A DNA stretch of 32,807 nucleotides from positions 1 through 32,807 of the forward strand of contig NZ_JAAALN010000018.1 of NCBI RefSeq assembly GCF_009906795.1, written 5' to 3'. Below, piece after piece: positions 211-32,728 of the stretch (position 1 is the stretch's first letter; each line of letters begins with the position of its first letter). The DNA comes from Kineococcus siccus. Its GTDB lineage: Bacteria; Actinomycetota; Actinomycetes; Actinomycetales; Kineococcaceae. Both the position numbers and the translations under genes were made by a program. The notes beneath the pieces are model-generated. The model saw only the letters and a list, made by a program, of their open reading frames with translations. It did not search any database and was not told the DNA's origin.

Positions 211-3200
211 TCACGTGAGGCGCGTCGTCAGCAGGGCGCCGATCGTGTCCACGGTCCGCGGGGAGATGACGGTGCTGCTGCCGAAGACCCACACGCGGCT
301 GACGCGACTGCCCGTCCGCAGCGCAGCACCGGTGGCTGGGGCGAGGACGGCGGGACCGGTGAAGAGCAGCGGTTCGCCGCGGCCGCTCATGGCCGCGGCT
401 CCGGTCGCGGCGGTTCGCCAGTCCTCGCCGGAGGCGATGCCCAGGCTGGCGGGTCGGGTGAAGCGACGGGCGACCAGGCTCGCGGTGGCGTAGCGGTCCA
501 CACCCACGATGGACGTCCCCGCCCGCGGGTAGGCGGCCGCCGCGGCGCCGCCGACGGTGGTGGTGCGGGCCCCGGTGGGGTCGTGGGCCGTGAGGTAGGC
601 CTCCGTGGCCGCCGGCAGCTGCTTGCCGGCCGTGAGCAGCACGACACCGCCGGTGGACCCGGCGAGAGCGGCCGCAGCCAGCCCGTCCGGGAAGTCCGCC
701 GCGGACGCCAGGTAGACCGGCGCGGCGGGGTTCGGGTCAGCGCTCAGGACGGCTGCGCTGATGCGCGCAGCCGTCTCGTACCGGTCCGCACCGCCCAGGC
801 GGACGACGTCGTACCCAGCCTCGCGCGTGAGGGCGTCGCGGACGGTGGGCGACAGCGCGTGGACGTCGCCCAGGACGTAGACGCGGCCGCCAGGCGCGAG
901 GAGGCGACGCAGCTCGGCGACGACGGTGGCGTCGAGGGCGGTGCCACCGGTCAGCAGCAAGGGTCCGCCGACGGCGGATGCGAGGCGAGCCCCCGCGAGG
1001 GAGTCCGCGTGACTACCGGACGTGGCGAGCACGGCAGCCGGGACACGAGTGCCGGCGGGGAAGAAGATCGCCGTGACCGAGGGGAGCCCCGTCTGCGGCG
1101 CGAGGTCGCTGACGCGCACCACCTGGGATGGCGCGGGCGGGGCCGCCCAGGTCGTCTGCACGGGGGCGGACGGCAGGCCGCGGCCGGCGGCGTTGACGGC
1201 AGTGACGGTCACGAGGTACGTCTGCCCCGCCGTCAGGCCGGCCACCAGCACGGGGCTGGTGCTCCCCGTGGCGACGACGGGCGCGGCCAGGCTCGCTCCG
1301 GTGACGCTCACGCGGTAGCCGGTGACGGGGCCCGACCCGGCGTCGGTGGGGGGAAGGAAGGTGACGCGCGCCGTGGTGCCCAATCCGGTCACCTGGACGT
1401 CCGTGGGGTTGCCGGGCACGGTGCCGGGCGTTCGCGGCGCGGGGGCGACGACGATGGTGACCGCCGCGGTGGCGGGCGGCGCGACCCCGTTGGCGGCGGC
1501 GACGACGACCCGGTACGCACCGGCGACCGTGGGAGTTCCGGTCAGAGCTCCGGTCACGCGGTCCAGCCCGAGGCCGGGCGGCAGGGCCCCGGCGGTGATC
1601 GTGTAGCTGACGGTGGGGACCCCGGTCGCCGCGATTGTGTAGGCGTAGGGCTGGTCGACGGTGCCGGCGGGCGGGCTCACGGCGGTAAACGCGGGCGCCA
1701 CCGGTGCAGGAGCGACCTCAAGGGCGACGGCCTGGTCGGCGGTTCCGGAGGCGTTCTCGGCTCGCACGGTGAACGTCGCGGGCCCCGCCGTGGTCGGGCT
1801 CCCGCTGATGAGTCCGCTGACGGGGTCCAGGCTGAGACCGACCGGGAGGCCGCCGCTGATCACCTGGAGGGTCGGTGCCGGGTACCCGGTCGCGGTGACG
1901 GTCTGGGCGTACGCGATCCCGACGGTCGCGGCGGGTGGGACCGCGGACGTGAAGGCCGGCGCCTGAGGAGCGAAGACGACGGTGGCGTTGACCGCCTGGT
2001 CGGCGTCGGCGCCGACACCGTTGCCAGCGCTGACCGTGAACGCCGTCGTTCCCGCCGACGTTGCAGTTCCGTCCAGCACGCCCGTGCTGCCGTTCAGGGT
2101 CAGCCCGGGCGGGAGCGCCCCGTTGCTCACGCGGAACGTCGGCGCCGGGTACCCGGCCGCCGTGAAGGTGTGAGCGTAGGCCGCGCCGACGGTCGCGGCC
2201 GGCGGCGCCGCTGAGGTGAACACCGGCGCTGCCGGTGCGGATGACACGACGATGCTCACCGTCTGACCCTCGTCGCCCACGAAGTTGCCCGCGACGACCG
2301 TGGCCGCGGCGCTCTGGGCGATGGTCGGAGTTCCGCTGAGGGTCCCGGTGACGGGGTCGAGGGTGAGTCCCGCGGGGAGGGCGCCGCTGGTCACGCGGAA
2401 CGTCGGCGCGGGGTCTCCCGTGCCGGTGAACGTGTGCGTGTACGGGGTGCCCACCGTCGCGGTCGCGGGCGCTGCGCCCGAGGTCATGCGGGCGGGCGTC
2501 GTGGTCGGTGGTAACGACAGCTTCTGCACCTGGTGGTTGTTCTGGTCGGCGATGTAAGCCGTCCCCGTCCCCGTGACGGCGACGCCGAGCGGGATCCGCA
2601 GCGCCGACGACGTGGCCGGGCCGGGCGTGACCGCACCGGACGAGCCGTTGCCCGCGACCGTGCTGAGGTAGCCGCTGCTGTGGTCGACCACGACGATGCG
2701 GTTGTTGCTGCGGTCGGCGATGAACACGTTGCCGCGGGCGTCGACGGCGACACCCGTCGGCTCTCGGAGGAGGGCGGCAGTAGCCGGGACATCGGTGGAG
2801 ACGCCCGCCGAACCGGCGCCGGCGACGACGCTCAACACGCCCGTGACCGCGTCGATCCGAGCGACCTGGTGGTTGTTGCGCAGCGCGACGAACAGGTTTC
2901 CGGCCGCGTCGACCGCGAGCCCGTTGGGAGTGTTCAACGGCGACCGCGCCGCGGGACCGGGCTGGACCGGTCCCGGCGCCCCCGTCCCGGCCACGAAGCT
3001 GAGCTGGCCTGCGGGGTCGACCTTCAGCACCCGGTGCGCGTTGCGGTCGGCGATGAAGACGTTGCCGGCGGCGTCGGCGGCGACGCCGAACGGGGAGAGG
3101 AACGGCGACGCGGTGGCCGTGCCCTCGACGGGTACCGCGGTGGCCCCCGTGCCCGCCACGACCGTGAGGACCTTCGTGGTCGCGTCGACCCGCTCGACCC

Positions 3201-3684
3201 GCCGGTTGGCGTCATCAGCGATGAAGAGGTTGCCGGCCGGGTCCAGGGCAATGCCGATCGGGTTGCTCAGGCTCGAAGCGGTGGCCAACGCCCCCGGAGA
3301 GGGAGGACCGGCCGTCCCGGTGCCCGCGACGAACGTCAGCAGTCCCGTGACCGCGTCGACGCGCTCGATGCGGGCGTTGTCCCGGTCGGCGATGAACACG
3401 TTGCCGGCGGAGTCGGTCGCCACAGCGAACGGGAGCTTCAAGAAGGAGGAGGCCGCAGGTCCCTCCGTCGCCACGCCACCCGTCCCCCGACCGGCGAGGG
3501 TCGAGAGGAGGAAGGGTCCCGGCGGAGCCGGAGCCGGAGCCGGCGCGGCGACGGCGGGTCCCGCACCGAAGGCGGGAAGGGCCAGAGCCAGGACAGCGCT
3601 GAGCGCGACGAGCACGACACGTCGCCGCGTCCAGGAGCGGCCGTCGGCAGACGCGGATCCCTCGCTCCGACGACGGACGTCCAC
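211..3684 (-). CDS. Secreted NHL-repeat / putative-Ig / Fn3 / cell-wall-binding repeat 2 protein
   Basis: A 1157-aa surface protein. The GTG start at 3684 follows an AAGGGGAA Shine-Dalgarno-like stretch. Residues 1-47 form a Sec signal: an Arg-rich start, a hydrophobic core near 22-40, then an Ala/Pro linker. Residues ~70-395 hold six NHL-type beta-propeller repeats with the recurring pattern GVAVDAAGNVFIADRxNxR, enough for one six-bladed propeller. Residues ~397-745 hold four putative-Ig (He_PIG) repeats with GALPPGLTLDxxTGxLxGTPT cores. Residues ~760-855 are a fibronectin type III domain. The C-terminal ~300 residues contain three cell-wall-binding repeat 2 units, including RLGGADRYETAARIS and GVDRYATASLVA. 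The likely role is display of an adhesive or ligand-binding propeller on the cell wall; the ligand is unknown. It lies 63 bp downstream of the GGDEF-EAL gene on the same strand, so the two could be co-transcribed. Confidence 0.88.
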   Translation of the reverse strand: MDVRRRSEGSASADGRSWTRRRVVLVALSAVLALALPAFGAGPAVAAPAPAPAPPGPFLLSTLAGRGTGGVATEGPAASSFLKLPFAVATDSAGNVFIADRDNARIERVDAVTGLLTFVAGTGTAGPPSPGALATASSLSNPIGIALDPAGNLFIADDANRRVERVDATTKVLTVVAGTGATAVPVEGTATASPFLSPFGVAADAAGNVFIADRNAHRVLKVDPAGQLSFVAGTGAPGPVQPGPAARSPLNTPNGLAVDAAGNLFVALRNNHQVARIDAVTGVLSVVAGAGSAGVSTDVPATAALLREPTGVAVDARGNVFIADRSNNRIVVVDHSSGYLSTVAGNGSSGAVTPGPATSSALRIPLGVAVTGTGTAYIADQNNHQVQKLSLPPTTTPARMTSGAAPATATVGTPYTHTFTGTGDPAPTFRVTSGALPAGLTLDPVTGTLSGTPTIAQSAAATVVAGNFVGDEGQTVSIVVSSAPAAPVFTSAAPPAATVGAAYAHTFTAAGYPAPTFRVSNGALPPGLTLNGSTGVLDGTATSAGTTAFTVSAGNGVGADADQAVNATVVFAPQAPAFTSAVPPAATVGIAYAQTVTATGYPAPTLQVISGGLPVGLSLDPVSGLISGSPTTAGPATFTVRAENASGTADQAVALEVAPAPVAPAFTAVSPPAGTVDQPYAYTIAATGVPTVSYTITAGALPPGLGLDRVTGALTGTPTVAGAYRVVVAAANGVAPPATAAVTIVVAPAPRTPGTVPGNPTDVQVTGLGTTARVTFLPPTDAGSGPVTGYRVSVTGASLAAPVVATGSTSPVLVAGLTAGQTYLVTVTAVNAAGRGLPSAPVQTTWAAPPAPSQVVRVSDLAPQTGLPSVTAIFFPAGTRVPAAVLATSGSHADSLAGARLASAVGGPLLLTGGTALDATVVAELRRLLAPGGRVYVLGDVHALSPTVRDALTREAGYDVVRLGGADRYETAARISAAVLSADPNPAAPVYLASAADFPDGLAAAALAGSTGGVVLLTAGKQLPAATEAYLTAHDPTGARTTTVGGAAAAAYPRAGTSIVGVDRYATASLVARRFTRPASLGIASGEDWRTAATGAAAMSGRGEPLLFTGPAVLAPATGAALRTGSRVSRVWVFGSSTVISPRTVDTIGALLTTRLT

Positions 3685-14607: not shown

Positions 14608-15464
14608 TGGCAGCCCGCGTCATCCAGCTTCGACCTGCGTCTCCGCCACGCCCGTCGCGTCCCATGACTGACGCAGACGTCGCGGCCCTCTACGCCCGGA
14701 CACCGGGTGCACCTCCCGGCCGCCCCCAGCGCACGCGTCGCCGCAGGTGGGCGTTGGTGGCCGGGATGTGCATCGTCCTGAGTGCAGCGGTCGTGGCCCT
14801 TCGCCCGGGCGGGGAGGACGCCGCCCATCCGAGTCCGTCGCCACCGGTGCACACATCGCCGGCGTCGACGCAGCTGCAGTGGCAACAGGTGGACGGCGTC
14901 TGGTTCCCGGTCTCGCCCGCAGCTGGCCCCACGACCCTGGACGAGGACCGAGCGGCGGGCTTCGACGGCTCTGACCTCGGTGCGGCGCTCGCCGCACTGC
15001 ACCTGGTCTACCGAGCAAGCGCCGCACCGGGACCGTCGTCGTTCGTCCCCACCTTGCGGGACCAGGTGGTGGGGCCCGCAGCCGCGCAGCTGACTGAGTC
15101 CGTCCGCCGTGACTACGACGAGGCAGGCGCTGTCGCGGGTATCCGCGAGGGCGAGCCGCTGCCTGCCGGCGCCGCCGCCTTCCTGGGGTACCGCGTCTCC
15201 TCCCTCCCCGACGGCAACCGCGCCGTGCAGATCGTCGAGCAGGCGCCCGACGCGAGCGGCGTCCTCCAGCCGTTCGCCTTCGACGTCGTCGTGACGCGCG
15301 CCCGCAGCACCAGCACAGGCGCAGGCGCGAGCGCGGGCGACTGGAAGGTCGTGGCGCCGGCGACGGGAACCTGGAACTCCGCCTTCAGCCAGCTGCCCCA
15401 CGTCCCCGGGGACATGGTGCCCTTCTCACCCGCGGCTCCGACCGCTGTGCTGGAGGCTCACTGA
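14607..15464 (+). CDS. Single-TM conjugation protein (VirB8-like candidate, DUF8175-type)
   Basis: A 285-aa protein starting at ATG 14607 in a TGATG overlap with the preceding stop; a longer open frame to 14430 is shadow. Residues ~1-45 are a basic cytoplasmic tail (RRRRW), ~46-65 one membrane helix (WALVAGMCIVLSAAVVAL), then a Pro/Ser/Thr spacer and an external domain. That domain contains GFDGSDLGAALAALHLVYRA and a later mixed beta region (LGYRVSSLPDGNRAVQIVEQ, DWKVVAPATG). This bitopic layout with a NTF2-like-sized external domain is that of VirB8/TcpC assembly factors, and proteins with the GFxxSxLGAALAAxH signature recur in actinobacterial conjugation loci. VirB8 equivalence is inferred, not shown by motif. 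Confidence 0.65.
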   Translation: MAARVIQLRPASPPRPSRPMTDADVAALYARTPGAPPGRPQRTRRRRWALVAGMCIVLSAAVVALRPGGEDAAHPSPSPPVHTSPASTQLQWQQVDGVWFPVSPAAGPTTLDEDRAAGFDGSDLGAALAALHLVYRASAAPGPSSFVPTLRDQVVGPAAAQLTESVRRDYDEAGAVAGIREGEPLPAGAAAFLGYRVSSLPDGNRAVQIVEQAPDASGVLQPFAFDVVVTRARSTSTGAGASAGDWKVVAPATGTWNSAFSQLPHVPGDMVPFSPAAPTAVLEAH

Positions 15465-16633
15465 TGCCTTGCACTCCGACCACGCCCCTGAGTTGCGCGA
15501 CCGACCTCGTGGGCGGTCTCGCCAGCTCTGCCGCCACGGCCGCAACGGCCTCCACCGGGAGCGCGTTCGCTGACGCGATGCGCGACGGCGCGACCTGGAT
15601 CATCAAGACGACCGTGGGCTGGTGGCTCGAGGTCCCGTCCATCGACTTGGCGGAGTCGCCCGCCGTCCAGCTCCGGGAGTACGTCTGGTGGCTCGCGATC
15701 GTCGTGGCAGCAGGGAGTGTGACCTGGCAGGGAGCGAGGATGGCCCTGACTCGACGTGCCGATCCCCTGCTGGACATCGGGCGCGGACTGCTCACCCTGG
15801 CACTCTGGGCCGGCGTCGGGATCACGGCGCCGGCTCTCGCGCTCCAGGCGGGTGACGCCTTCTCCCTCTACGTGCTCGACAAGGCGGCCAGCGGACGGGT
15901 GGCCGACCGGTTGATCCAGCTCGCCAGTCTGACCGGAGTGAACTCTGCCGGAGCCGTCATCATCCTGGGTCTGGTGGCCATGCTGGCCGGTCTGGTCCAG
16001 GCCGTGCTCATGATCTTCCGTGAGGGCGCGGTCGTCGTCCTGGCAGGAACGCTGGTCCTGGCGGCAGCTGGGAACGCGTCGAACTTCGGCAGGCCGTGGC
16101 TCATGAAGCTGATCAGCTGGATGCTCGCTCTCGTCTGCTTCAAGCCGGTTGCGGCACTGGTCTACGCGACGGCACTGGTGATGACCGGGGAGGGGACCGA
16201 CCCGAGGACGGTCATCGTGGGGTTGACGATGATGGTCCTGGCGGTCGCGGCCCTCCCTGTGCTCATGAAGCTCTTCAGCTGGGCGACGGGTAGCACCGGT
16301 CACTCCGGCAGCCTGGGCGGCGCTGCGGCGGCCGCCATGGGCACGGCGGCTGCCGGCGTTCAGGTAGCAGGTGCCGCCCGTTCTCGTTCCGGAGCGACGG
16401 CGGCGGGCGCCATGCCGGCCACCGGTCAGGCCCAGAGCATCTCCCGCGACCTGGGCGGTTTCGGCAGTGCACCGACAGGAGCCGCAGCGACGACGGGCGC
16501 CTCCGTGGCGGCAGGAGGCGTCGGGGTCGCCGCTGCCGTGGTCGGGCGCGCTGCGGACGTCACCAAGCAGGCCGGCAGTAGCGCCGCAGCCCCCCTCGCC
16601 GATCGACCTGAAGGGACGGACCGCAGCGCATGA
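15464..16633 (+). CDS. TrbL/VirB6-like polytopic conjugation channel protein
   Basis: A 389-aa protein starting at ATG 15464 (TGATG overlap; GGAGG seven bases upstream). About six membrane segments lie near residues 73-93, 104-127, 163-187, 188-206, 214-240 and 245-265, followed by a ~115-residue Ala/Gly/Ser/Thr-rich low-complexity tail. This pattern is typical of TrbL/VirB6-type inner-membrane channel subunits of actinobacterial and Gram-positive conjugation systems. It is placed between the VirB8-like candidate and the SCO6880/VirB4 genes, as expected for a channel component. The tail is probably cytoplasmic or disordered. Family assignment is by topology and context, with little sequence-motif support. 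Confidence 0.72.
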   Translation: MPCTPTTPLSCATDLVGGLASSAATAATASTGSAFADAMRDGATWIIKTTVGWWLEVPSIDLAESPAVQLREYVWWLAIVVAAGSVTWQGARMALTRRADPLLDIGRGLLTLALWAGVGITAPALALQAGDAFSLYVLDKAASGRVADRLIQLASLTGVNSAGAVIILGLVAMLAGLVQAVLMIFREGAVVVLAGTLVLAAAGNASNFGRPWLMKLISWMLALVCFKPVAALVYATALVMTGEGTDPRTVIVGLTMMVLAVAALPVLMKLFSWATGSTGHSGSLGGAAAAAMGTAAAGVQVAGAARSRSGATAAGAMPATGQAQSISRDLGGFGSAPTGAAATTGASVAAGGVGVAAAVVGRAADVTKQAGSSAAAPLADRPEGTDRSA

Positions 16634-18162
16634 CCACCGTCACCGGGCACTCGGGCACCAGCAGCCGCAAGGCTCAGGACGTGAGCGGCATCCGCACCTA
16701 CGGGGGCTGGCGCCGAACCCGCGGGATCGGACTCTTCGGTCTCGGCGCCACCGCGACCCTCATCGTCCTGGGATGTGCGGTGGTGCCGCTCCTCGGTCTC
16801 GCGATCGACGTGCGGACGGGCCTCACCCTCGCGGTCCCCTGCGCGCTCGTCACCCTCGTCACCTGCGCACGCATCGACGGTGTGCCGTTCAGCCACCTCG
16901 TTATCCGGCGCTGTCAGTGGCGATGGGCTGTCGCCCGCGGCTACACCTCCCTGCGAGCCGGAGTCGTCAGTGACCACCCCTCGGCCTGGCAACTGCCGGG
17001 AGTGCTCGCCCCGACGGAGCTGCTCTCCGTCGAGGACGGGCGCGGGGGGCGGTTCGGCCTGGTTCGCGATCGCTCATCGGGACTGCTCACCGCGACGCTG
17101 AGGTGTGCCTCGACGTCGACGTGGCTCGTCGACGGCGCCGACGCCGACGCCTGGGTCTCGAACTGGCACTCCTGGCTGGCCTCCCGAGGCTTCGACCCGC
17201 TGGTCGCCTGGGTGGCCGTCACCGTCGACACCGCGCCCGAGCCGGGGTCGACGCTGGCACGCAACGTCGGCGTGCGCCTCGACGGATCAGCTCCACGGGA
17301 CACGCAGATCCTCATGGCCGAACTGGTCGACGGCTCGCCCTCAGCCTCGGCCGACGTCGACACCCGGGTGTCCATCACCTTCGACCCGTCTCGGGCCGGT
17401 GACCGGCTCGACGACCTCGCCGACCAGGCCGCCGAGGTCTCCCGCGCCTTGTCCGGGATGGAGGCCGCCCTGAGCGAGTGCGGGGTGACGGTCCTCGCGC
17501 GGTGCTCGGCGACCGAGCTCGCCGGTTGCGTGCGCGTCGCCTTCGACCCCACCTCACGTGGTGACGTCGAGTCCGTCGTCGGCGCCGGCACGACCGTGGA
17601 GGAGGGTGGCCCCTTGTCCTGGGAGACGTCCGGACCCGTTGCCGCCGAGGAGGCGTGGGACCACTACCGCCACGACTCGGGAACCTCGATCACGTGGTCG
17701 TGGCACGAGGCGCCGCGCCAGCAGGTGACGTCGAACGTCCTCGTACGACTCATGTCTCCCTCCCGGTACCCGAAGCGGGTCACGATGCTCTACAAACCGC
17801 TGAGCGCAGGCTCCGCCTCCCGGCTGCTCGAGGGACAGGTCAACGCTGCCGCGTTCCGCGAGGCCTATCGGCGAAGTCAGGGACGCGACGCCACCGCTCG
17901 AGACCAAGCCGACCAGGAGCAGGCTCAGAACGCCGCCCGAGAGGAGGCGCTCGGCGCCGGAGTCGTCCTGATGAGCTTGTACGCGACGATCACCGTCACC
18001 GACCCCGACGACCTCCCCGCAGCGGTCGCTGATGTGGAGGCCCGTGCCGACCAGTCGAAGGTCCAGGTTCGCCGGATGTTCGGCGCCCAGTCGGTCGGCT
18101 TCGCCACCACCCTTCCCGCGGGGATCTACCCACCGTTCGTCGCAGGCAGGAGCACCCGATGA
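16630..18162 (+). CDS. SCO6880-family conjugation membrane protein
   Basis: A 510-aa protein starting in an ATGA overlap at 16630. The N-terminus has the family-typical start (YGGWRRTRGIGLFGLGATAT), with two membrane helices at ~32-59 and ~62-81 followed by a basic segment, like a PrgI/TcpE-type protein. The long soluble part (SHLVIRRCQWRWAVARGY, then DGADADAWVSNWHSWLASRG) resembles the N-terminal, non-ATPase domain of VirB4/TraE proteins. It thus looks like a PrgI-like membrane anchor fused to a VirB4 N-domain, while the motor domain is encoded separately by the next gene. Known members occur almost always beside VirB4- and VirD4-like genes in actinobacterial plasmids and integrative elements. 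No Walker motif is present. Confidence 0.8.
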   Translation: MTTVTGHSGTSSRKAQDVSGIRTYGGWRRTRGIGLFGLGATATLIVLGCAVVPLLGLAIDVRTGLTLAVPCALVTLVTCARIDGVPFSHLVIRRCQWRWAVARGYTSLRAGVVSDHPSAWQLPGVLAPTELLSVEDGRGGRFGLVRDRSSGLLTATLRCASTSTWLVDGADADAWVSNWHSWLASRGFDPLVAWVAVTVDTAPEPGSTLARNVGVRLDGSAPRDTQILMAELVDGSPSASADVDTRVSITFDPSRAGDRLDDLADQAAEVSRALSGMEAALSECGVTVLARCSATELAGCVRVAFDPTSRGDVESVVGAGTTVEEGGPLSWETSGPVAAEEAWDHYRHDSGTSITWSWHEAPRQQVTSNVLVRLMSPSRYPKRVTMLYKPLSAGSASRLLEGQVNAAAFREAYRRSQGRDATARDQADQEQAQNAAREEALGAGVVLMSLYATITVTDPDDLPAAVADVEARADQSKVQVRRMFGAQSVGFATTLPAGIYPPFVAGRSTR

Positions 18163-19658
18163 TCCAACGAGCCTTCATGCGCCCACCGCGCCGCTCCCCC
18201 GCCGCTGGAGACGTGGTCCCGCCCGCCTGGGGGTGGCGTGCACCCCGCGCCGGTCGCCTGGCCCACGTCGCGGCCGCACCCGAGTACCAGGCCACGACGG
18301 TGCAAGCGTGCGGCCTGTACCCGTTCGTGGCCGGCTCCGGGTCCCCCTCGGTAGGAGTTCCCGTCGGCCGCCACATGATGTGGGGGGAGGTGGTCTGCAT
18401 GGACCCCTTCGCCTGGCTCGACGCGGGGCTCGTCACCAACCGCGGCCTCACCGTCCTCGGGCAGCCTGGCACGGGGAAGTCCGCGATGCTCAAACGTCTC
18501 TCACGCGGGATGCTCGCGTTCGGCGTCCGACCGTTGTTCCTCGGTGACCTGAAACCCGACTACTCCGCTGTCGTGCATTCCGCCGGCGGGCAGGTTCTTC
18601 GGGTAGGGCGCGGCCTGGACCGCATCAACCCCCTGGACGCCGGCCCGCTCGGCGCCGCACTGGCCCGGATGTCCGGCCCCGGTGCCCAACGCCTGCGCCT
18701 GGAGGTTCGGGGGCGGCGTCTCTCGGCCACCCTTGCGCTGTGTTCGCTGGTTCGCCGCCACGCCCGGGTGACCAACGGGGAGGAGACCGTGCTCGGTGCC
18801 GCTGTCGACCTGCTGACGGAACGCGCGACAGAGGGCGTCGACCCCACGATCCCGGATGTGCTGCGGGTCATCCGGCAGGCTCCCGATCGGCTGGTGGCTG
18901 CCGCCGAGGTCGACGACGCGCCCGCCTACCGCACCGAGACGAAAGAACTCCGCCAGACGCTCAACCTGTTGTGCGAGGGCTCGCTGAAGGGCGTCTTCGA
19001 CGGCCCGACGTCGCACCCCATCGACCTCGACGCCCCGGCGGTGAGCGTGGACATCTCTGCCGTGGCCGCCTCGGGCGACACCCTCGTCGCGGCCGCGATG
19101 CTCTCGACGTGGTCGTACGGATTCGCCGTCATCGACGCCTCGACCGCACTGGCCGAGGCCGGTCTCGCGCCGCGGCGACGGTACTTCGCCGTGATGGACG
19201 AGCTGTGGCGGGCACTGCGCGGGGCCCCAGGTCTCGTCGACCACGCCGATGCCCTCACCCGCGTCTACCGGGGGCGCGACGTCGCTCACGCGATGGCCAC
19301 CCACTCCCTCGACGACCTCTCTGCGCTGCCGAGCGAGGAGGACCGTGCCAAGGCTCGGGGGTTCATCGAACGCAACGCCATCACCGTCCTTGCGGGCCTG
19401 CCCCCGCGCGAACTCGAGGAGGTGACCCGCGTCGTGCCGCTGTCCGGCCGCGAGGTGTCCATGGTCTCGTCCTGGTCCGCACCCGAGTCCTGGCAGACCG
19501 GCGCCCGCCACCCCGGGCGAGGGAAGTACCTGCTCAAGACAGGTCAGCGAGTCGGCATCCCCGTGGAGATGGAACTCGTCGGCGACGAGCCTGCCCTGTA
19601 CGACACCGACTCCAGCCACCGGCGCCCCGCGGCGCCGTCCTCTCGGGAGGTCCTGTGA
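18159..19658 (+). CDS. VirB4-like conjugation ATPase
   Basis: A 499-aa ATPase starting at ATG 18159, six bases after AGGAG and overlapping the previous stop (ATGA). It has a canonical Walker A, VLGQPGTGKSAMLKRL, near residues 100-110, and a Walker B, RRYFAVMDELWRAL, near 340-350. A later YRGRDVAHAMATHSLDDL and a C-terminal VSSWSAPESW complete the HerA/VirB4 motor pattern. Family members hydrolyse ATP at the inner membrane to power assembly or substrate transfer. The VirB4 N-terminal domain is apparently supplied by the upstream SCO6880-family gene, so the pair acts as a split VirB4. The GTG of the coupling-protein gene overlaps its stop. Confidence 0.85.
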   Translation: MIQRAFMRPPRRSPAAGDVVPPAWGWRAPRAGRLAHVAAAPEYQATTVQACGLYPFVAGSGSPSVGVPVGRHMMWGEVVCMDPFAWLDAGLVTNRGLTVLGQPGTGKSAMLKRLSRGMLAFGVRPLFLGDLKPDYSAVVHSAGGQVLRVGRGLDRINPLDAGPLGAALARMSGPGAQRLRLEVRGRRLSATLALCSLVRRHARVTNGEETVLGAAVDLLTERATEGVDPTIPDVLRVIRQAPDRLVAAAEVDDAPAYRTETKELRQTLNLLCEGSLKGVFDGPTSHPIDLDAPAVSVDISAVAASGDTLVAAAMLSTWSYGFAVIDASTALAEAGLAPRRRYFAVMDELWRALRGAPGLVDHADALTRVYRGRDVAHAMATHSLDDLSALPSEEDRAKARGFIERNAITVLAGLPPRELEEVTRVVPLSGREVSMVSSWSAPESWQTGARHPGRGKYLLKTGQRVGIPVEMELVGDEPALYDTDSSHRRPAAPSSREVL

Positions 19659-23837: not shown

Positions 23838-26800
23838 GTGCGAGCTGCAGCCAAGCGCGCCAAGACTCAGACCAGTCAACGTTCGGAGGCCCCGAACGAC
23901 GCTGATCCGTCCACGAACCTCGCACCTCGCAGGGGCCTGTCACGGTGGGATGCCGGCCCGGTCGCTGGGGTCGTGACCGGTTGCGTCGCGGCTGGTGTCG
24001 CGGTGGCGTTTGCGGTCCCGGCGGCGGCCGCGACACCGTCCACCGCGACACCGTCCACCGGGGCGGCGTCGCCGAATCAGGGGCGGGCACCGCTGACGTC
24101 GGCGCAGCAGCCGTCGTCGGTGTACCCGAAGCTGTCGCAGGCCGCGAAGGATGCGCTGCTGAAGGCGACCGCGAAGACCGCCGGGGACGCGGTACCGGTG
24201 GAGGACGTCGCAGCGCGCACCGCGTACTCCACGACCACGGTGGACCCGGAGTCCGGAACCCACCGCACGGTGATCTCTCCGGATGCGGTGAACTACCGCG
24301 ACGCCTCGGGTGCGTTCAAGCCGGTGGACAACGACCTGGTCTCCGCGGCCGCGAAGGCGGGTGGGGCGAGCACCGGGTGGCAGAACGCCGCCGCCGGCTA
24401 CGACGCCGCGTTCCCCACCGACCTGACCAAGCCGGTCACCATCACCGACCAGAACGACGCCGCCCGCTGGGTGTCGCTGCAGCTGAACCCCACCCAGGCG
24501 GCGGCCCCCGCACCCGCCTCGCCCGCCGCACCTGCCTCGCCTGCCGCCTCGACCGCGACGTCGACCGCAGCTCCTGTGCCGGCCCCCACTGCCGAGGCGA
24601 CCGCGTCGGCGAAGGCGGCCAGGTCCCTGGCCTCGGCGCCGGCGTCCGCACCGGCCACGAGCACGATGTCCTCGAGCACGGCGGGGGCGCCGACTGAGGT
24701 GCCGGTCGCTGCGGCGCCGGGCGTGGTGTCCGGCGATGAGGTGGTCTACGACAACGTGCTGCCCGGTGCCGATGTGACGTTCCAGGCGCAGGGGTCGGGG
24801 GTCAAGGAAGCCATCACCCTGGACAGCGCTGCTGCGCTGCCCGGGGGTGCGCTGACCTACACGATCCGGACCGGCAAGGACCTGAAGCTCACCGAGACCG
24901 ATGACGTGGTCGCGGTGACCACGGCGGCGGGGGCGCCGGTGTTCGTGATCCCGGCCCCGTTCCTGGACGACGCGAAGGGCGCGCACTCCGACGACGTCGA
25001 CGTCACTATCGCCCCCGACACCGCTGCCGGGGCGGGGGTGTACGCGATGACGGTGACCCCGTCGAAGGACTGGCTCGCCGCACCGGAGCGGGTGTGGCCG
25101 GTGGTCTTGGACCCGACCATCCAGTACCCGGACCCGATGCTGGCCTGCTCGCTGCGCTCCGCGGCCCCGACGGTCAGCAACTGCAGCGGCTCCAGCGTCC
25201 CGCTGTCGTGGGATGCCAGCACCGGCACCCAGGAGCGCGCGATCCTGCGGTTTGAGTCCCTCGCCGATGCCGTCCCGGCGGATGCGATCATCGCCGACGC
25301 GCAGCTGCAGCTGAACATCGCCTCCCCGGCCGCGGGCACCACCGCGCCCACGGGGGCCGCGGCCAGCGTGGATGTGCGTGAACTCACGAAGTACTACGAG
25401 CCCGGCGCGTCGTGGAACCAGGCCACCAACACCACCGCGTGGGCCACCCCCGGCGGTGACCGCGCCGCCCTGGTCAGCGCCCGCACCCAGGTCGTCGCCA
25501 ACGGCACCTACCAGAACATCGGTGTCTCCGAGCTCGTGCAGCGCTGGGTGGAGGGCACCTCCACCGCCCACGGCTTCGTGCTGGAGAAGACCTCCGCCAC
25601 CGCCGGCGGCGCCCGCGTCGTCGTCGGCGCCCCCTCCGCGGGGGCCACGACGGCCCCGAAGTTGCAGGTCATCTGGGAGCCGCGGGTCGGTGACCGCAAG
25701 GGCAACTCCGCTCTGCTCACCGAGGAGCTCGACGACCGCACCACCGTGACCGTGAACCCGGCCACCGGCAACGCCGCCGTCGAGACCTCCGCCCTGGCCA
25801 TCGCCGGGGTCGGGCTGGACTTGAATGTCACGCAGACGTCGAACTCGCTGAGCACCAACTTCCGCACCGCGACCGGGTACGGGTGGAACTCCTCCATCGG
25901 TGACCAGCACCTGCAGCGCTACGGCAAGACCACCTTCTACCGCGACGGGGCCGGGACGAACTGGACGTTCTACCTCGCCGTCGACGGCACCTGGGTGCGC
26001 CCGCTCGGCCTGGACGTGGACCTGGTGCAGAACGCCAACAACACGTTCACGATGACCGACCGCCGCGCCAAGGTCGTGACCTCGTTCGTGGACATCGGCT
26101 CCCCGGCGGGTGAGTGGTACAAGCCGGCCACGATCACCGACCGCAACGGCAACGCGATCACCTTCGCCTACGACGCGACCGCCCGCACCCCCTACAACGG
26201 GTGGAAGATTCTCCGCTCGGTCACCGACACCCGCGGCCGGGTCCTCACCGTCGCCAACGGTGGCGCGTACAACGCCTTCATGGAAGACGTCCAGGGGCGG
26301 TCGGTGTACTACACCATCACCAACGACAACCTGACGACCTTCAGCAACGGCGCCGGCGGCGACACCACCTACACCTACGACGCCGCCCGCCGGGTCACCT
26401 CCATCACCGTCCCCGAAGGCCAGCGCACCGAGCTGACCTACGACCGGGGTGGCCGGGTCCTCACCCTGAAGCGGATCACCGCCGACGTCGGCACCAAGAC
26501 GTGGACCTTCGCCTACACCCCCTTCACCCGCACCGCGGGGGTGTCCTCGACGAAGACCACGGTCACCGATTCGAACAACCACAACACCGTCTACACCTCC
26601 GACGGCCGCGGCCGCGTCATGGACGCCACCGACGCCCGCGGCAAGAAGCGATCCGGCACGTACACCCCCAATGACGATGGGGCCACCGCCACCGGTGCCA
26701 CTGCGGGCGCGGGTGGGGCAGGCCAGACGACTGTCGACACCTACGACTCCGTTGGGTCGTCACCGCAGGCCGCGACGTGGAACCTCAGCTCCTCTCGACT

Positions 26801-29036
26801 CCCCAGCGGAGCCGGGATCAGCAACACCTACGGCACCGGCACCCGGCTCTACGACGTCATGACGTCCACCGACGCCCGCGGCAACGTCACGACCAACACC
26901 TACGACACCGTCGGCAACCCGACGTCGTCGACCACCGGTGGGCTGACCACGAAGAACCTGTACCAGGGCAACACCGATCCCGACTACGGCGGCACCGTGA
27001 ACTGCGGGCCCACCGTCAACAACGTCATCACCGCGACGAAGGCCGGGGTGCTGTGCGAGACCCGCGACGGCGCCTACGTCAAGGGCGCCACCGCCGCGTC
27101 GACCACCGCGCACCGCGTGGCCTACCGGTACAACGCCAAGGGTGAGCTCGTCACCCTGCTGCCCGGCACCCCGTCCGCGCAGCAGCAGCAGACCTTCGCC
27201 TACGACACCCTGTCCCGGCTCACCTCGACCACCGACGGGCGCGGGCAGGCCACCACCTACAGCTACGACGCGATGGACCGCGTCATCTCCACCAGGTACG
27301 CCGACGGGCGCGTGGTCAACACCTTCTACGGCGCCCCCGGCGGCAACGGCTGGCTGAAGGCCGTCGAGGAGTTCCCCTCGGCCACCGCCACCACTCCCGA
27401 CCGGGCCACCGACTACGTCCGCGACGGCCTCGGCCGGCTCAAGCGCACCGAGGCACCCGAGGACGTCATCTCCCTCGGCTACGACCTCGGCGGCAACCTC
27501 ACCAGCTACACCGACAACGGTGGCGCGGTCAGCTACGGCTACAACGACGCCGACCAGCTCACCTCCCTCGCCCTGCCCGGCGGCACCTGCACCGGGCAGA
27601 GCATCACCAACCCCGGCGCTGCGTCCACCAAGTGCGTCCTGTTCGCCGTCGACGACGACGGACGCCGCACCAACACCCGCTACCCCGGCGGGCAGAGCAT
27701 GGCCACCACCCTCGACGACTCCGGCCGCCTCAAGCAGGTCATCGGCACCACCCTCGCCGGCACGACCAGCACCCCGCGGCTGAACCTTGCCTACACCTAC
27801 ACCGACACCGCCGCCCCCACCTCGGCCACCAACCCGACCAAGGACACCGCCCTGGTGTCCTCGGTCACCGACGCCCTGTCCGCGGCGAAGACGACCTACA
27901 GCCACGACGGCCTGGACCGGCTCACCGCCGCCTCCACCGCGCCCACGGCCGGGGGAGCGGTCACCCGCTACGAAGGCTTCTGCTACGACGGCGCCGGTAA
28001 CCGCACCGCCTACCTCAACACCACCGCCACCACCTGCACCAGCGGCACCCCGGCCGCGTCGTTCACCTACAACGGCGGCAACGAGCTCACCACCGCCACC
28101 GGCGTCACCCCCACCGGCGCACCCCTCACCGGCACCGGGTACACCTACGACGGCAACGGCAACCAGACCAGCTCCAAGTCCGCGCCCGGCCTGAGCACCA
28201 CCTACAACGCTCAGGAAGCCGCCGCCAGCTTCACCCCCGCCGGCGGCACCGCCATCGCCCAGGCCTACGCCGCCGGCAACGGCGGCAACGGCGAACGCAT
28301 CCGCTCCGGCACCGGCGCCACCGCGACCAGCTTCGCGGTCAGCCCGCTCAGCCCCGCCCCCGCCTGGTCCAAGACCGGCACCACCTCCACCTGGACCGTC
28401 CGCGACCCCAGCGGCACACTGATCGCCGTGCGCATCGGCAGCTCACCCACCACCACGACGGAGTACTACCCCTTCACCGACAACGTCGCCTCCGTCCGCG
28501 CCATGGTCAAGGCCGACGGCACCCTCGCCAACACGTACAGCTACTCCGCCTACGGCAGCACCCTCAACGCCACCGAAGCCGCCGGCGCATCTCAGCCCTT
28601 CCGCTACGGCGGGGGGCACACCGACGCCGCCACCGGCCTCGTCAAGCTCGGCATCCGCTACTACGACCCCACCCAAGGCCGCTTCACCCAGCAAGACCCA
28701 ACCAGCCAGGACCGGTACGCCTACGCGTATGCCTTCGGAAGCCCTACCAGTCACGCAGACCCCACGGGCGCTATTCCCCCTCTTCTGATCGCCGCGGGAG
28801 TGGCCGCGGTTCGGGCGGCCGCGCCGCATGTTGCTCGGGCAGCGGCCCCGTACGTGCGCCAGGTGGTTCGAGTGGGCGGAGGTCGCGTGTCTCTGGGTCC
28901 GGCAAGGAATCACTGGAAGAGGATGAGTCCAGGGATGCAAAGTGTTGCTAGGTACCATGTGCACGTGGAGAAGCGTTACGGAGGGATCGACAACTGGGTT
29001 CGCGGGACGAACCGGACATGGTGGAAGAACGGCTGA
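23838..29036 (+). CDS. Exported DNRLRE/YD-repeat (RHS) polymorphic toxin with unrecognised C-terminal domain
   Basis: A 1732-aa protein starting at GTG 23838, four bases after GAGGGGGGA. The basic N-terminus and the hydrophobic stretch at ~41-65 ending in AVPAAAA form a Sec-type signal. A Pro/Ala/Thr/Ser-rich linker lies near residues 215-300. Residues ~460-615 are a DNRLRE domain (AILRFESLADAVPADAIIADAQL, split here as AILRFESL ... DAQLQLN). From ~680 to ~1600 run YD repeats such as TYTYDAARRVTSITV and TTYSYDAMDRVISTRYADG, which form the RHS shell. The conserved core end, GIRYYDPTQGRFTQQDPT, is followed by HADPTG at ~1644. The remaining 88 residues (nt 28770-29033) differ in composition and are the presumed toxin: a hydrophobic Ala/Val helix, GGGRVSLGPARNHW, YHVHVEKRYGGIDNW, then a Trp-rich end. 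I do not recognise this domain. The next gene overlaps by 19 bp. Confidence 0.9.
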   Translation: MRAAAKRAKTQTSQRSEAPNDADPSTNLAPRRGLSRWDAGPVAGVVTGCVAAGVAVAFAVPAAAATPSTATPSTGAASPNQGRAPLTSAQQPSSVYPKLSQAAKDALLKATAKTAGDAVPVEDVAARTAYSTTTVDPESGTHRTVISPDAVNYRDASGAFKPVDNDLVSAAAKAGGASTGWQNAAAGYDAAFPTDLTKPVTITDQNDAARWVSLQLNPTQAAAPAPASPAAPASPAASTATSTAAPVPAPTAEATASAKAARSLASAPASAPATSTMSSSTAGAPTEVPVAAAPGVVSGDEVVYDNVLPGADVTFQAQGSGVKEAITLDSAAALPGGALTYTIRTGKDLKLTETDDVVAVTTAAGAPVFVIPAPFLDDAKGAHSDDVDVTIAPDTAAGAGVYAMTVTPSKDWLAAPERVWPVVLDPTIQYPDPMLACSLRSAAPTVSNCSGSSVPLSWDASTGTQERAILRFESLADAVPADAIIADAQLQLNIASPAAGTTAPTGAAASVDVRELTKYYEPGASWNQATNTTAWATPGGDRAALVSARTQVVANGTYQNIGVSELVQRWVEGTSTAHGFVLEKTSATAGGARVVVGAPSAGATTAPKLQVIWEPRVGDRKGNSALLTEELDDRTTVTVNPATGNAAVETSALAIAGVGLDLNVTQTSNSLSTNFRTATGYGWNSSIGDQHLQRYGKTTFYRDGAGTNWTFYLAVDGTWVRPLGLDVDLVQNANNTFTMTDRRAKVVTSFVDIGSPAGEWYKPATITDRNGNAITFAYDATARTPYNGWKILRSVTDTRGRVLTVANGGAYNAFMEDVQGRSVYYTITNDNLTTFSNGAGGDTTYTYDAARRVTSITVPEGQRTELTYDRGGRVLTLKRITADVGTKTWTFAYTPFTRTAGVSSTKTTVTDSNNHNTVYTSDGRGRVMDATDARGKKRSGTYTPNDDGATATGATAGAGGAGQTTVDTYDSVGSSPQAATWNLSSSRLPSGAGISNTYGTGTRLYDVMTSTDARGNVTTNTYDTVGNPTSSTTGGLTTKNLYQGNTDPDYGGTVNCGPTVNNVITATKAGVLCETRDGAYVKGATAASTTAHRVAYRYNAKGELVTLLPGTPSAQQQQTFAYDTLSRLTSTTDGRGQATTYSYDAMDRVISTRYADGRVVNTFYGAPGGNGWLKAVEEFPSATATTPDRATDYVRDGLGRLKRTEAPEDVISLGYDLGGNLTSYTDNGGAVSYGYNDADQLTSLALPGGTCTGQSITNPGAASTKCVLFAVDDDGRRTNTRYPGGQSMATTLDDSGRLKQVIGTTLAGTTSTPRLNLAYTYTDTAAPTSATNPTKDTALVSSVTDALSAAKTTYSHDGLDRLTAASTAPTAGGAVTRYEGFCYDGAGNRTAYLNTTATTCTSGTPAASFTYNGGNELTTATGVTPTGAPLTGTGYTYDGNGNQTSSKSAPGLSTTYNAQEAAASFTPAGGTAIAQAYAAGNGGNGERIRSGTGATATSFAVSPLSPAPAWSKTGTTSTWTVRDPSGTLIAVRIGSSPTTTTEYYPFTDNVASVRAMVKADGTLANTYSYSAYGSTLNATEAAGASQPFRYGGGHTDAATGLVKLGIRYYDPTQGRFTQQDPTSQDRYAYAYAFGSPTSHADPTGAIPPLLIAAGVAAVRAAAPHVARAAAPYVRQVVRVGGGRVSLGPARNHWKRMSPGMQSVARYHVHVEKRYGGIDNWVRGTNRTWWKNG

Positions 29037-29455
29037 CGTGGGCGGAGCAGGAGGGCAGTGGGTTGGATCTGAGTGAGGTCGAGGACATCGTCAAGACTGC
29101 CGCCCAAGACGTCGGCGGGCTATCCATCAGTAGCGATAAGGACGCCGGATACATCAGAATCTTTATTGGTCCACCATCGGGTGACCCCGAATCCGTCTCT
29201 GGCGACCCGCAGGTGCGGATCTGGACTTCCGGTACTGAAGCCTTCTTCATTGATGTCCCCGGAGGGTTCGGGTACCAGGAGTTCGATGACGTGCCTGAAG
29301 GCCAGGTCGCGACACTTCACCTACTAGTCACGCTAGCCAGCAGGTATCTACACGGTCACTTCGAGGAGAAAGAAGAGCAACGCTCCTTTGGACGACGGAG
29401 ACGCTACCTAGAAATTTCTTCGAGAAACGAGGTCTATCGACTGTATCAGAGGTGA
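29018..29455 (+). CDS. Putative immunity protein for the RHS C-terminal toxin
   Basis: A 145-aa cytosolic protein starting at ATG 29018, 19 bp before the RHS stop and in another frame. It is mixed alpha/beta and acidic in its first two thirds: LSEVEDIVKTAAQDVGGL, YIRIFIGPPSGDP, VRIWTSGTEAFFIDVPGGFG, then a helix LHLLVTLASRYLHGHFEE and a basic tail. It has no signal peptide or membrane segment. Position directly after a polymorphic-toxin C-terminus, overlap with it, small size and visibly more AT-rich DNA than the RHS body all fit an immunity gene acquired together with the toxin tip. No immunity family was recognised, so the call is based on context. Confidence 0.68.
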   Translation: MVEERLTWAEQEGSGLDLSEVEDIVKTAAQDVGGLSISSDKDAGYIRIFIGPPSGDPESVSGDPQVRIWTSGTEAFFIDVPGGFGYQEFDDVPEGQVATLHLLVTLASRYLHGHFEEKEEQRSFGRRRRYLEISSRNEVYRLYQR

Positions 29456-29998: not shown

Positions 29999-30376
29999 TC
30001 ACATCAGTAGAACTAACAGGGTTGCAGTCAGACCCCCTTGATCGCGCCGCTGACATGCGTGAGTGGCGCCGAAAGCCCAGTCGATGCAGCTGCACGCCTG
30101 GCGTAGGAAGGGCACAGGGTCGATCGCCGCGTTGGGGTTGTGCACTTCGAAGTGGAGGTGGCACCCAGTGCTCGTGCCGCCGTTGCCGACTCGGCTGATG
30201 AGTTGCCCGGCCGTCACAGTGGCGCCGACCTTCACCAGGAGATCCCGCGGCGCCATGTGCCCGTAGACGGTGCGGTACCCCCCGGCGTGCTCCAGGACGA
30301 TCCAGTGCCCGAACCCGCTCGCGGGCCCGCTGTTGACGATGCGTCCGGCTGAGGCGGCGTAGTTGTCATGGCCCAT
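29999..30376 (-). pseudogene. M23-type peptidase domain remnant
   Basis: The minus-strand frame from about 30415, with an ATG at 30376, reads HMGHDNYAASAGRIVNSG, then FGHWIVLEHAGG, TVYGHMAPRDLLVKVGATV and STGCHLHFEVHNPNAAIDP, ending at 29999. This is the LytM/M23 fold with both zinc motifs, HxxxD (HMGHD) and HxH (HLH). The roughly ten residues normally between HxGxD and YAAxxG (the GAPxGTPI segment) are missing, and no N-terminal domain or signal is present. The frame becomes unrecognisable near the ISL3 remnant. It is most likely the truncated end of a peptidoglycan hydrolase or of a toxin carrying such a domain. Its last ~30 residues (after PVPFLRQ) look non-native. Confidence 0.68.
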
Positions 30377-30520
30377 GTGAGGGGCTGGGCATCCCAAGGT
30401 GCTGGTGCTGCGGTCTCTCTGGACCACCTCCTGCGCTGTAACAGCACGCGGGATAATGTATGGAATCCCGTGCAATACCTGCGTCCCTGCGACGGTCATG
30501 ACGGCACCCCGAACCGTTGC

Positions 30521-31251
30521 GGTACAGGACCAGCCCGGTTGTTGGACATGGTCGAAGGCCGTTCCACGAAGGCGTTCCAGCAGTGGTTGGCCACCCGCCC
30601 CCAGGCCTGGCGTGACGCGGTCGAGGTCGTGGCCATGGATGGGTTCACTGGTTACAAGTCCGCTGCCACCCAGGAGTTGCCCGCCGCGGTCACCGTGATG
30701 GACCAGTTCCATGTCGTCCGCCTCGCCGGGGACACCGTGGCCGAAGTCCGCCGCCGGCGCCAGCAGGAAATGCACGGTCACCGCGGCCGGGTCGGGGATC
30801 CGCTCTACCCAGCGCGGCGGCTGCTGCACACCGGCGCGGACCTGCTCACCGCCCGCCAGCACGCCCGGCTGAACTCCGTGTTCGCCACCGACGACCACGT
30901 CGAGGTGGAAGCGACCTGGGGCGTCTACCAGCGGATGATCGCCGCCTACCGCGACCCCGACCGCCGCGCCGGCAAGCAGACCATGACCGCCCTCATCGAC
31001 ACCCTCAGTACCACCATCCCGGCTGACCTCGTCGAGCTCCGCCGCCTCGGGCGGACCCTGAAGCGACGAGCCGACGACGTCCTGGCCTACTTCGATCGAC
31101 CCGGTACGTCCAACGGCCCGACCGAGGCCATCAACGGACGACTGGACACCTACGCGGGTCCGCTTTGGGGTTCCGCAACCTCACCCACTACATCGCGAGA
31201 TTGCTACTCGAGTCAGGCGGGTTCAGACCTCGCCTACACCCTGCTTTGTGA
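30521..31251 (+). pseudogene. ISL3-family transposase, 5'-truncated and frameshifted
   Basis: From 30521 the frame reads GTGPARLLDMVEGRSTKAF, VVAMDGFTGYKSAATQELP and VTVMDQFHVVRLAGDTV, the DDE core of ISL3 transposases, with catalytic Asp in AMDG and VMDQ. It continues to RPGTSNGPTEAINGRLD, with the final Glu. Near 31151-31155 one base is lost: the proper ending, GFRNLTHYIARLLLESGG then FRPRLHPAL, lies in the next frame and stops at 31249-31251. The N-terminal zinc-finger/HTH region is absent; sequence left of 30521 does not match it. The remnant ends 8 bp from the stop of the convergent immunity-type gene, with no terminal inverted repeat seen. Confidence 0.82.
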
Positions 31252-31259
31252 AGAGCCCG

Positions 31260-31877
31260 TTAACGCCGCACTCGTCGCAATAGATGTGATGCTTCTTTAC
31301 CGAGCAAGGGGTGGAGTGCGAGGTCACCCAACACTTGGCGGCCAGACTCCCCCCCTAAGCGTCTGACGGCCTTGAGCATCATTAAGCGTTCACTACCCCG
31401 CCGTTCATCCGTTACGAGCCGCGTAAGCTCCGTGTAATGCCGCTTCGCGGCCAGCACCCCTAAAGCGTTGGCGAGTCCGGTGGCGGCCTCCGATTCGGGA
31501 GCCGTTTTGAGGTATGCGTCACGAAGATCGATCCAGTAAGCCGTGCCCTGGGGCTTCACCGTCAGTGCACGCGCAAGGCCATCTAGAACCCTGTCCGGAT
31601 ATCCACCTTTCTTAAGGTGATGCAGGAGTACTGGCAAGGCATCAGAATAGAAAGGGGGTCTAGATGTGGAATTAAGGAGATCCCACACCGAATCGACCCG
31701 TATCCCGACGTCGTCCAGATCGATGACGATCGGCCTCTCCGCGGCCGAAAGCTCGGCCATAGCTTGTGCTCGATCTACTTCATGTTTCGACAAGGCGGCT
31801 TGATACTCAGCATCACCCGCGAGCCTCCTCGCAAGGTCTACGGCAAGGATTGGGCCTTCTTGATTCGAGTCACTCAT
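31260..31877 (-). CDS. Putative immunity protein for the REase-7-like toxin
   Basis: A 205-aa, largely helical soluble protein starting at ATG 31877 in an ATGA overlap with the toxin gene's stop. After an acidic N-terminus (AELSAAERPIVIDLDDVGI) comes VWDLLNSTSRPPFYSDALPV, followed by repeated helical units (VLLHHLKKGGYPDRVLDGLA; ATGLANALGVLAAKRHYTEL; LMMLKAVRRLGGESGRQVL) like HEAT-type solenoids. Such helical-repeat proteins are common immunity proteins in polymorphic toxin systems. The DNA is more AT-rich than the core genes in the window. The immunity role is inferred from context; the gene is intact and therefore probably still selected. Confidence 0.68.
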   Translation of the reverse strand: MSDSNQEGPILAVDLARRLAGDAEYQAALSKHEVDRAQAMAELSAAERPIVIDLDDVGIRVDSVWDLLNSTSRPPFYSDALPVLLHHLKKGGYPDRVLDGLARALTVKPQGTAYWIDLRDAYLKTAPESEAATGLANALGVLAAKRHYTELTRLVTDERRGSERLMMLKAVRRLGGESGRQVLGDLALHPLLGKEASHLLRRVRR

Positions 31878-32728
31878 GAGATGAATCGTAGCTCCATCCT
31901 GTTCGCAGGGTTTTCGATGGCCCGGCGAAGTGGTTTACTGATCGTCGTGTCAGGTCGCACATACAGATGAAATTGCCGACCGGTTGATTGGGCATACTCC
32001 AGGCTATCCGTGAGCTGTCGCGTCAAAGCTTGATACTTCACGTTCTTAATCTCGGTCACGGCCTCCCTGCTTAGCCCGTCTAGGATTCGATTCCGCCCGC
32101 CGATCTTTTGGGCTGCCTTATCGCCGATTGCGTAGAACTCGCGCACGCGGGCCTCACCAGCTTGACCAGTTCTGACTGGCCCCGCACCGCCCCGCAGTTC
32201 TCGGCAGACTGCGATCTGGCGCTGTTGCAGGCTTTCGGTTGCGGTGGCCGAATGTTCAGCTCTGCCGGTTGCTTGTGCTCGTGCGGCGGCTTGGGCTGCT
32301 TTGCGAACGGACTGTGCTTGCTCCGCGGCTGTGGCGATGGCTTCTTCGGCTCGTTGCGCCGCGGAGCCGGCTTGGCTGGCGCCGCGGCCGAGTCCGCTGG
32401 CGGCGTTGCGGCCAATGGCGCGGGCGGCGGCCTCGGCTGTCTCCCGGGCCGCGTTGGCCGCGACTCGTGTGGCGGTCATGCCGAAGCGGGCTCCTGCCCC
32501 TCCTCCGGCGGTACCAAGGGAGACGATGGTGACGGCGGCGGTGGAGGCGCCGCAGCCGGCCAAGTAGGCGCCGGAGCTCTTGTTGACAGCACCAGGTGAA
32601 AGAGCGTCGTTGATGAGGTCAGTGGCGCCGAAGGTGGCGCAGCTGCCGAAGCCACCGAAGAAGTCGGCGACGCCTTGAAGGCTGGGGGCCTGCCCGGTGG
32701 TGTCGGCGTAGAGGAAGGGGTTGTTCAG
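31874..32728 (-). CDS. C-terminal end of an RHS-type toxin with Tox-REase-7-like nuclease domain (5' cut by IS)
   Basis: The open frame runs 284 codons from the IS junction to the stop at 31874; the frame has a TGA just inside the IS end (TTGACA). The first residues, LNNPFLYADTTG, match the end of an RHS repeat core (NNPxxxxDPTG). A spacer with Gly/Ala helices follows, then a long Ala/Glu-rich coiled coil (~90-160). The last ~100 residues hold the toxin: GEARVREFY, GRNRILDGLSREAVTEIKNV, LTRQLTDSLEYAQSTGRQFH and LYVRPDTTISKPL. D...ExK in ILDGL...TEIKNV is the PD-(D/E)xK signature of the Tox-REase-7 group, predicting a DNase. With no original start, it can be expressed only from an internal start such as TTG 32563 or by read-through. 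Confidence 0.78.
   Translation of the reverse strand: MNNPFLYADTTGQAPSLQGVADFFGGFGSCATFGATDLINDALSPGAVNKSSGAYLAGCGASTAAVTIVSLGTAGGGAGARFGMTATRVAANAARETAEAAARAIGRNAASGLGRGASQAGSAAQRAEEAIATAAEQAQSVRKAAQAAARAQATGRAEHSATATESLQQRQIAVCRELRGGAGPVRTGQAGEARVREFYAIGDKAAQKIGGRNRILDGLSREAVTEIKNVKYQALTRQLTDSLEYAQSTGRQFHLYVRPDTTISKPLRRAIENPANRMELRFIS

What the first reader, a model, noticed from the sequence alone, without database searches (positions are those of the whole stretch)
28770..29033. Unrecognised C-terminal toxin domain on a 1732-aa exported RHS protein
Sequence shows a complete RHS core ending in HADPTG, then 88 residues of different composition: a hydrophobic Ala/Val stretch followed by RVSLGPARNHW, YHVHVEKRYGG and a Trp-rich end. 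Polymorphic toxin theory (RHS/YD family) says the variable tip after the core is the toxin. His-Trp, His-x-His and Glu close together could be a nuclease or metal site, but I match it to no named toxin family. This is the best candidate in the window for undescribed biochemistry.
Basis: partly seen in the sequence, partly recalled or inferred. Interest (0 to 1): 0.8.

Follow-up and report, generated by a model that had tools for sequence, protein, structure and literature searches.

The report
Uncatalogued RHS toxin tip with immunity gene
The end of this large exported bacterial protein is a small, swappable toxin domain that belongs to no catalogued family and sits beside its probable antidote gene; it most likely poisons rival bacteria, perhaps by cutting RNA.

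Summary
In detail: the RHS core of the 1732-aa protein (23838-29036 +) ends at residue 1644, and the 88-residue tail matches nothing in Pfam, NCBIfam, PHROGs, PADLOC or the PDB. The tail is very probably a real toxin module. Stepwise searching (downstream protein first, then a two-sequence profile) found six relatives in other genomes of the same order, defining an uncatalogued domain of about 60-74 residues: VR..., R-[VM]-S-x-G, W/Y, then H-x-H. Leave-one-out scores are 30-79 bits; no shuffled copy exceeded 15.4. Five relatives are tips of about 2,200-2,350-aa RHS proteins whose bodies barely match this one. The sixth directly follows a pretoxin HINT domain with no RHS body, limiting the toxin to about 72 residues and showing that the Ala/Val stretch is not part of it. 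All seven have a 117-145-aa gene within -19 to +41 nt of the toxin stop; three of these neighbours are homologous to each other, a fourth marginally. GC3 drops from 0.93 (body) to 0.67 (tail) and 0.63 (neighbour). Residues invariant in all seven (R, R, S, G, H) with pI 10.4-12 suggest a metal-independent RNase, which is inferred. Fold and toxicity are untested.

The parts
23838..29036 (+). 1732-aa exported RHS/YD-repeat carrier protein; hydrophobic signal-like segment near the N-terminus, DNRLRE domain, a sub-threshold match to DUF6531, RHS repeats, RHS core
   Evidence: ORF; RHS_repeat 1e-17, TIGR03696 3e-17, DNRLRE 4e-15; DUF6531 just below its cutoff
28542..28769 (+). RHS-associated core, residues 1569-1644, containing DPTS-x17-DPTG, resembling the aspartyl autocleavage motif of Rhs proteins
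   Evidence: TIGR03696 residues 1569-1644; paired Asp motif with 17-residue spacing described in PMC8636562; cleavage inferred
28770..28859 (+). Hydrophobic Ala/Val/Arg linker between RHS core and toxin core; not part of the conserved toxin domain
   Evidence: Length and sequence vary among RHS relatives and it is absent from the HINT-linked relative
28860..29033 (+). Toxin core (58 aa), uncatalogued domain; conserved VR, R-V-S-x-G, W and R-x-H-x-H positions
   Evidence: Six relatives; leave-one-out 61.3 bits against a maximum of 15.4 over 1000 shuffles
29018..29455 (+). 145-aa acidic immunity protein candidate (net charge -11, pI 4.7); its ATG lies 19 nt upstream of the end of the toxin stop codon
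   Evidence: homologues follow the same toxin domain in two other genomes (a third is marginal)

Best explanation
Residues about 1675-1732 are the warhead of a polymorphic (RHS) toxin. The protein is exported; the RHS shell probably releases the tail after the DPTG motif, and the hydrophobic linker may help entry into the target (inferred). In a neighbouring bacterium the small, very basic domain (pI 11.8) acts as a toxin, most likely a metal-independent ribonuclease using the invariant Arg, Arg, Ser and His (inferred). The 145-aa acidic protein encoded by the overlapping gene binds the toxin and protects the producer (inferred from synteny and homology). Shown here: a conserved domain family, modular transfer between carriers, a conserved downstream partner, and a cassette of different composition from the body. 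Not shown: toxicity, substrate, fold, delivery and neutralisation.
For: Seven members of one domain, each recovered by a profile of the others (30-79 bits; shuffle maxima 8-15). It occurs in three contexts: this RHS body, 2209-2352-aa RHS proteins whose bodies share only patches of 25-32% identity (plus one 23-residue stretch at 52%) with this one, and directly after a PT-HINT pretoxin domain (PF07591, 4.5e-14). All seven have a small gene within -19 to +41 nt. Homologous partners occur beside the G000, G631 and G409 toxins (leave-one-out Z 29.6, 11.9, 11.5), and marginally in G466 (Z 3.5). RHS-core matches stop at the tail boundary. GC3 drops at the boundary. Toxin cores have net charge +9 to +18; six of seven partners are acidic. 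R, R, S, G and H are invariant. Two-His or single-His metal-independent RNases are common among predicted tips of this kind (PMC3482391).
Against: No toxicity data. No confident structure: the single-sequence AlphaFold model has pLDDT 50.8. The catalytic class is inferred from seven sequences only. Partners in G657, G560 and G529 are not detectably homologous to P0003 (Z below 1). P0003-like proteins also stand alone without any RHS toxin nearby in several genomes, so that family is not exclusively an immunity protein or includes orphans.
Confidence: 0.52

Rival explanations
1. The same toxin module, but a metal-dependent nuclease (DNase or RNase) in which H-x-H and the following Glu/Asp bind a metal ion.
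For: H-x-H is present in 6 of 7 members, and an acid follows the second His by two residues in 6 of 7 (alignment). Very basic domain.
Against: First His is Asn in G657 and the acid is Ser in G631, while Arg, Arg, Ser and one His never vary. No HNH, REase or GIY family matches in Pfam.
Confidence: 0.18
2. A toxin with a non-nuclease activity, such as modifying a protein or cleaving NAD+, using the conserved Arg/Ser/His.
For: Polymorphic toxin tips include many such enzymes (PMC3482391); conserved Arg and Ser occur in several transferase families (own knowledge).
Against: At about 60-72 residues (limited by the HINT-linked copy) the domain is small for most such folds; no match to any in Pfam or the PDB.
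Confidence: 0.2
3. A common inert RHS ending with an unrelated downstream gene.
For: No toxicity has been measured.
Against: Domain is rare (6 of 297 genomes of the order including this one; no convincing hit elsewhere in 375 of the class), moves between unrelated carriers, follows a HINT pretoxin domain, and carries a downstream partner homologous in at least three cases.
Confidence: 0.04
4. A toxin tip of this family that is truncated or inactive in this strain.
For: Shortest core of the family (58 aa; the loop between the two Arg-bearing strands lacks about 5-6 residues present in the others); an IS element and a second, orphan RHS tip lie just downstream.
Against: All invariant residues are intact, the frame is open, and the immunity candidate is intact and overlapping.
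Confidence: 0.06

Closest known systems
RHS/YD-repeat polymorphic toxins (WapA, RhsA, T6SS Rhs; Zhang et al. 2012, PMC3482391)
   Same: Large exported RHS carrier, conserved core end, variable C-terminal tip, small downstream gene, orphan tip nearby
   Different: Tip domain matches no described toxin family; no T6SS adaptor recognised on the carrier
BECR-fold RNase toxins (colicin D/E5, EndoU, Ntox7/19/35/50)
   Same: Small basic C-terminal domain; conserved His with Arg and Ser; downstream immunity; HINT and RHS carriers
   Different: No sequence match to any of their Pfam models; fold not established
Ntox8, Ntox24 and Ntox30 (predicted RNase tips with His/Arg motifs in PMC3482391)
   Same: Described motifs combine His and Arg (or Tyr) residues on RHS carriers
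   Different: Motif order differs (HxR/HxxxH; Y,H,H; RxH with THIP) and Pfam scans of this tail and its six relatives gave no toxin match

Membership tests
RHS polymorphic toxin | RHS repeats and RHS-associated core | tested here: met
   PF05593 1e-17, TIGR03696 3.3e-17
RHS polymorphic toxin | Sequence relatedness to other RHS proteins stops at the core end; tip variable | tested here: met
   All 25 listed plasmid matches end at residue 1644-1651
RHS polymorphic toxin | Tip domain shared with other carriers | tested here: met
   Five other RHS proteins and one PT-HINT cassette
RHS polymorphic toxin | Adjacent immunity gene that neutralises the tip | tested here: inconclusive
   Adjacent gene in 7 of 7, homologous in three and marginal in a fourth; neutralisation not testable here
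RHS polymorphic toxin | Autocleavage after the second DPxG-type motif | not testable with these tools
   Paired DP motif present; spacing as in PMC8636562
BECR-fold RNase | BECR fold | tested here: inconclusive
   Model confidence too low; no family or PDB sequence match
BECR-fold RNase | RNase activity | not testable with these tools
   Needs biochemistry
HNH / metal-dependent nuclease | Conserved metal-binding His/Asp/Asn set | tested here: not met
   First His of H-x-H and the acid each vary in one member; no Pfam match
Known Ntox/Tox families in Pfam or NCBIfam | Profile match | tested here: not met
   No toxin family at E up to 10 for any of the seven tips

The most novel reading that the evidence does not exclude
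An undescribed, very small (about 60-72 aa) toxin fold with a new Arg-Arg-Ser-His active site, spread as a cassette among RHS and HINT carriers in this bacterial order, with an undescribed immunity family.
Probability: 0.3. Interest if true: 0.68.

Novelty: new variant of a known kind. Interest (0 to 1): 0.5.

Why it matters
RHS toxins in high-GC Gram-positive bacteria are little studied. This defines a compact toxin domain and a conserved partner that no curated library tested here holds, gives its minimal boundaries and its invariant residues, and makes activity and neutralisation directly testable with two short genes. It also shows that the downstream protein family exists apart from RHS toxins, which may be orphan immunity or another function.

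Tried and rejected
Single-sequence searches with the tail found nothing in pattern scans of species genomes, plasmids, phages or viral contigs; class-level weak hits were chance: none of the loci read lay in an RHS protein. Hits in viral contigs L087 (a protein that reads like a methyltransferase) and L088 were rejected as chance. AlphaFold on the tail and on the neighbour alone gave pLDDT 50.8 and 52.5, too poor for a fold search, so none was run. A weak PDB hit (PACRGB, E 0.01) and nanobody hits to the two-sequence profile vanished with the six-member profile. A weak NCBIfam hit of the G560 partner (21 bits against a cutoff of 760) was ignored. Papers searched did not turn up this domain, but only open-licence papers are held and only a few searches were made.

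Full report
OBSERVATION. The 1732-aa ORF (23838-29036 +) and its 88-residue tail (28770-29033) are as described. TIGR03696 covers residues 1569-1644 almost end to end. In tblastn of residues 1301-1732 against plasmids, all 25 listed matches stop at residue 1644-1651. GC3 falls from 0.93 in the body to 0.67 in the tail and 0.63 in the next gene, and GC skew changes sign there. The tail has no match in Pfam, NCBIfam, PHROGs or PADLOC and only chance matches in the PDB.

FINDING RELATIVES. The tail alone found none in pattern-based scans of species genomes and viral contigs, nor in plasmids or phages. Its weak hits among 395 genomes of the class were not in RHS proteins. The downstream protein P0003 was the key: among 396 genomes of the order it has relatives down to E 4e-15. 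One of them, in G631, lies directly behind a 2334-aa RHS protein whose tail reads FRVSWGNTRRKW...TRFHGHV, 33% identical to the query core. A two-sequence profile then found four more members at E 9e-10 to 2e-11, and the six-member profile one more at 4.7e-6 (read).

THE FAMILY. Members are G000 (this window), G409, G466, G529, G560, G631 and G657. Each is recovered by a profile of the other six with 30.3-78.5 bits, while the best of 1000 shuffles reached 8.4-15.4. Pattern: x-[VL]-R-[VIMA]-x ... R-[VM]-S-x-G ... [WY] ... [HN]-x-H-[VIM]-x-[RKG]. Invariant in all seven: the first Arg, the Arg and Ser of RxS, the Gly after it, and the second His of H-x-H. The first His is Asn in G657, and the acid two residues after the second His is Ser in G631. 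All cores are strongly basic (net +9 to +18, pI 10.4-12.0). No toxin family in Pfam or NCBIfam matches any of the seven tips.

MODULARITY AND BOUNDARIES. In G409 the domain follows a pretoxin HINT domain (PF07591, E 4.5e-14, residues 27-157 of a 229-aa ORF) with no RHS body, so the autonomous toxin is at most about 72 residues. In the RHS members a hydrophobic linker of variable length separates the core end from the domain. The Ala/Val stretch of the finding is therefore linker. The body of the window's protein shares only patches of 25-32% identity (and one 23-residue stretch at 52%) with the bodies of the other RHS members, while the pairs of those that I compared are 31-52% identical over almost their whole length. 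The simplest reading is that the tip has moved between carriers.

THE PARTNER GENE. Every member has an ORF of 117-145 aa starting between 19 nt before and 41 nt after the end of the toxin stop codon. The partners of G000, G631 and G409 are homologous (leave-one-out Z 29.6, 11.9, 11.5, with stand-alone relatives in the training set); G466 is marginal (Z 3.5; no shuffle reached it); those of G657, G560 and G529 are not detectably related. Six of seven are acidic. Relatives also occur away from RHS genes, in one genus as several copies behind genes that read like RidA proteins (the RidA resemblance is my reading, not tested). This is what orphan immunity would look like, but it could also be a broader family with another role.

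MECHANISM. Characterised T6SS Rhs proteins are cleaved after a second DPLGL-type motif by an aspartyl autoprotease and release the tip (PMC8636562). The pair DPTS-x17-DPTG here resembles that arrangement; cleavage here is inferred. The small basic domain with invariant Arg, Ser and His and no consistent metal-ligand set fits a metal-independent RNase, a class predicted to be common among such tips (PMC3482391). I put toxin function at about 0.93 and RNase activity at about 0.55 given that. The single-sequence AlphaFold model is too poor to use (pLDDT 50.8).

KNOWN OR NEW. The system is an RHS polymorphic toxin, a known kind. The warhead, and this partner family, are not in the curated libraries tested. 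That makes it a new variant of a known kind, not a new kind of system. Rarity (6 of 297 genomes of the order including this one, none convincing elsewhere among 375 of the class) may explain why it is uncatalogued; sampling was limited and the class search used only the weaker two-sequence profile, so the true range may be wider.

Noticed in passing
window 31260-32563 (-): A second RHS tip cassette on the opposite strand: Tox-REase-7 domain (PF15649, 4.7e-17) in ORF 31874-32563 with an overlapping 205-aa gene 31260-31877. The sequence before it reads like the end of an RHS core with an in-frame stop (R*HLNNPFLYADTTG), so it looks like an orphan tip.
   Followed up: partly
window 30368-31366 (+): ISL3-family transposase (PF01610, 2e-44) between the two RHS tip cassettes, with what reads like an M23 peptidase remnant on the - strand near 30000-30300 (remnant by eye).
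   Followed up: partly
window 15464-19658 (+): Three consecutive ORFs (389, 510, 499 aa) with overlapping stop/start codons and no Pfam match at E 0.001.
   Followed up: no
window 211-3684 (-): 1157-aa protein with NHL repeats, putative Ig domains, fibronectin type III and cell-wall-binding CWB2 domains.
   Followed up: no
L079 1951-2238 (-) and 1563-1985 (-): Behind the G560 toxin lies a second candidate tip (96 aa, KGKFRIGWPNGRKKEG...) with its own overlapping 141-aa neighbour; neither matches Pfam.
   Followed up: no
L051, L052 (G487): Three copies of the P0003-like family within about 14 kb, some downstream of genes that read like RidA-type proteins, with no RHS toxin seen.
   Followed up: partly
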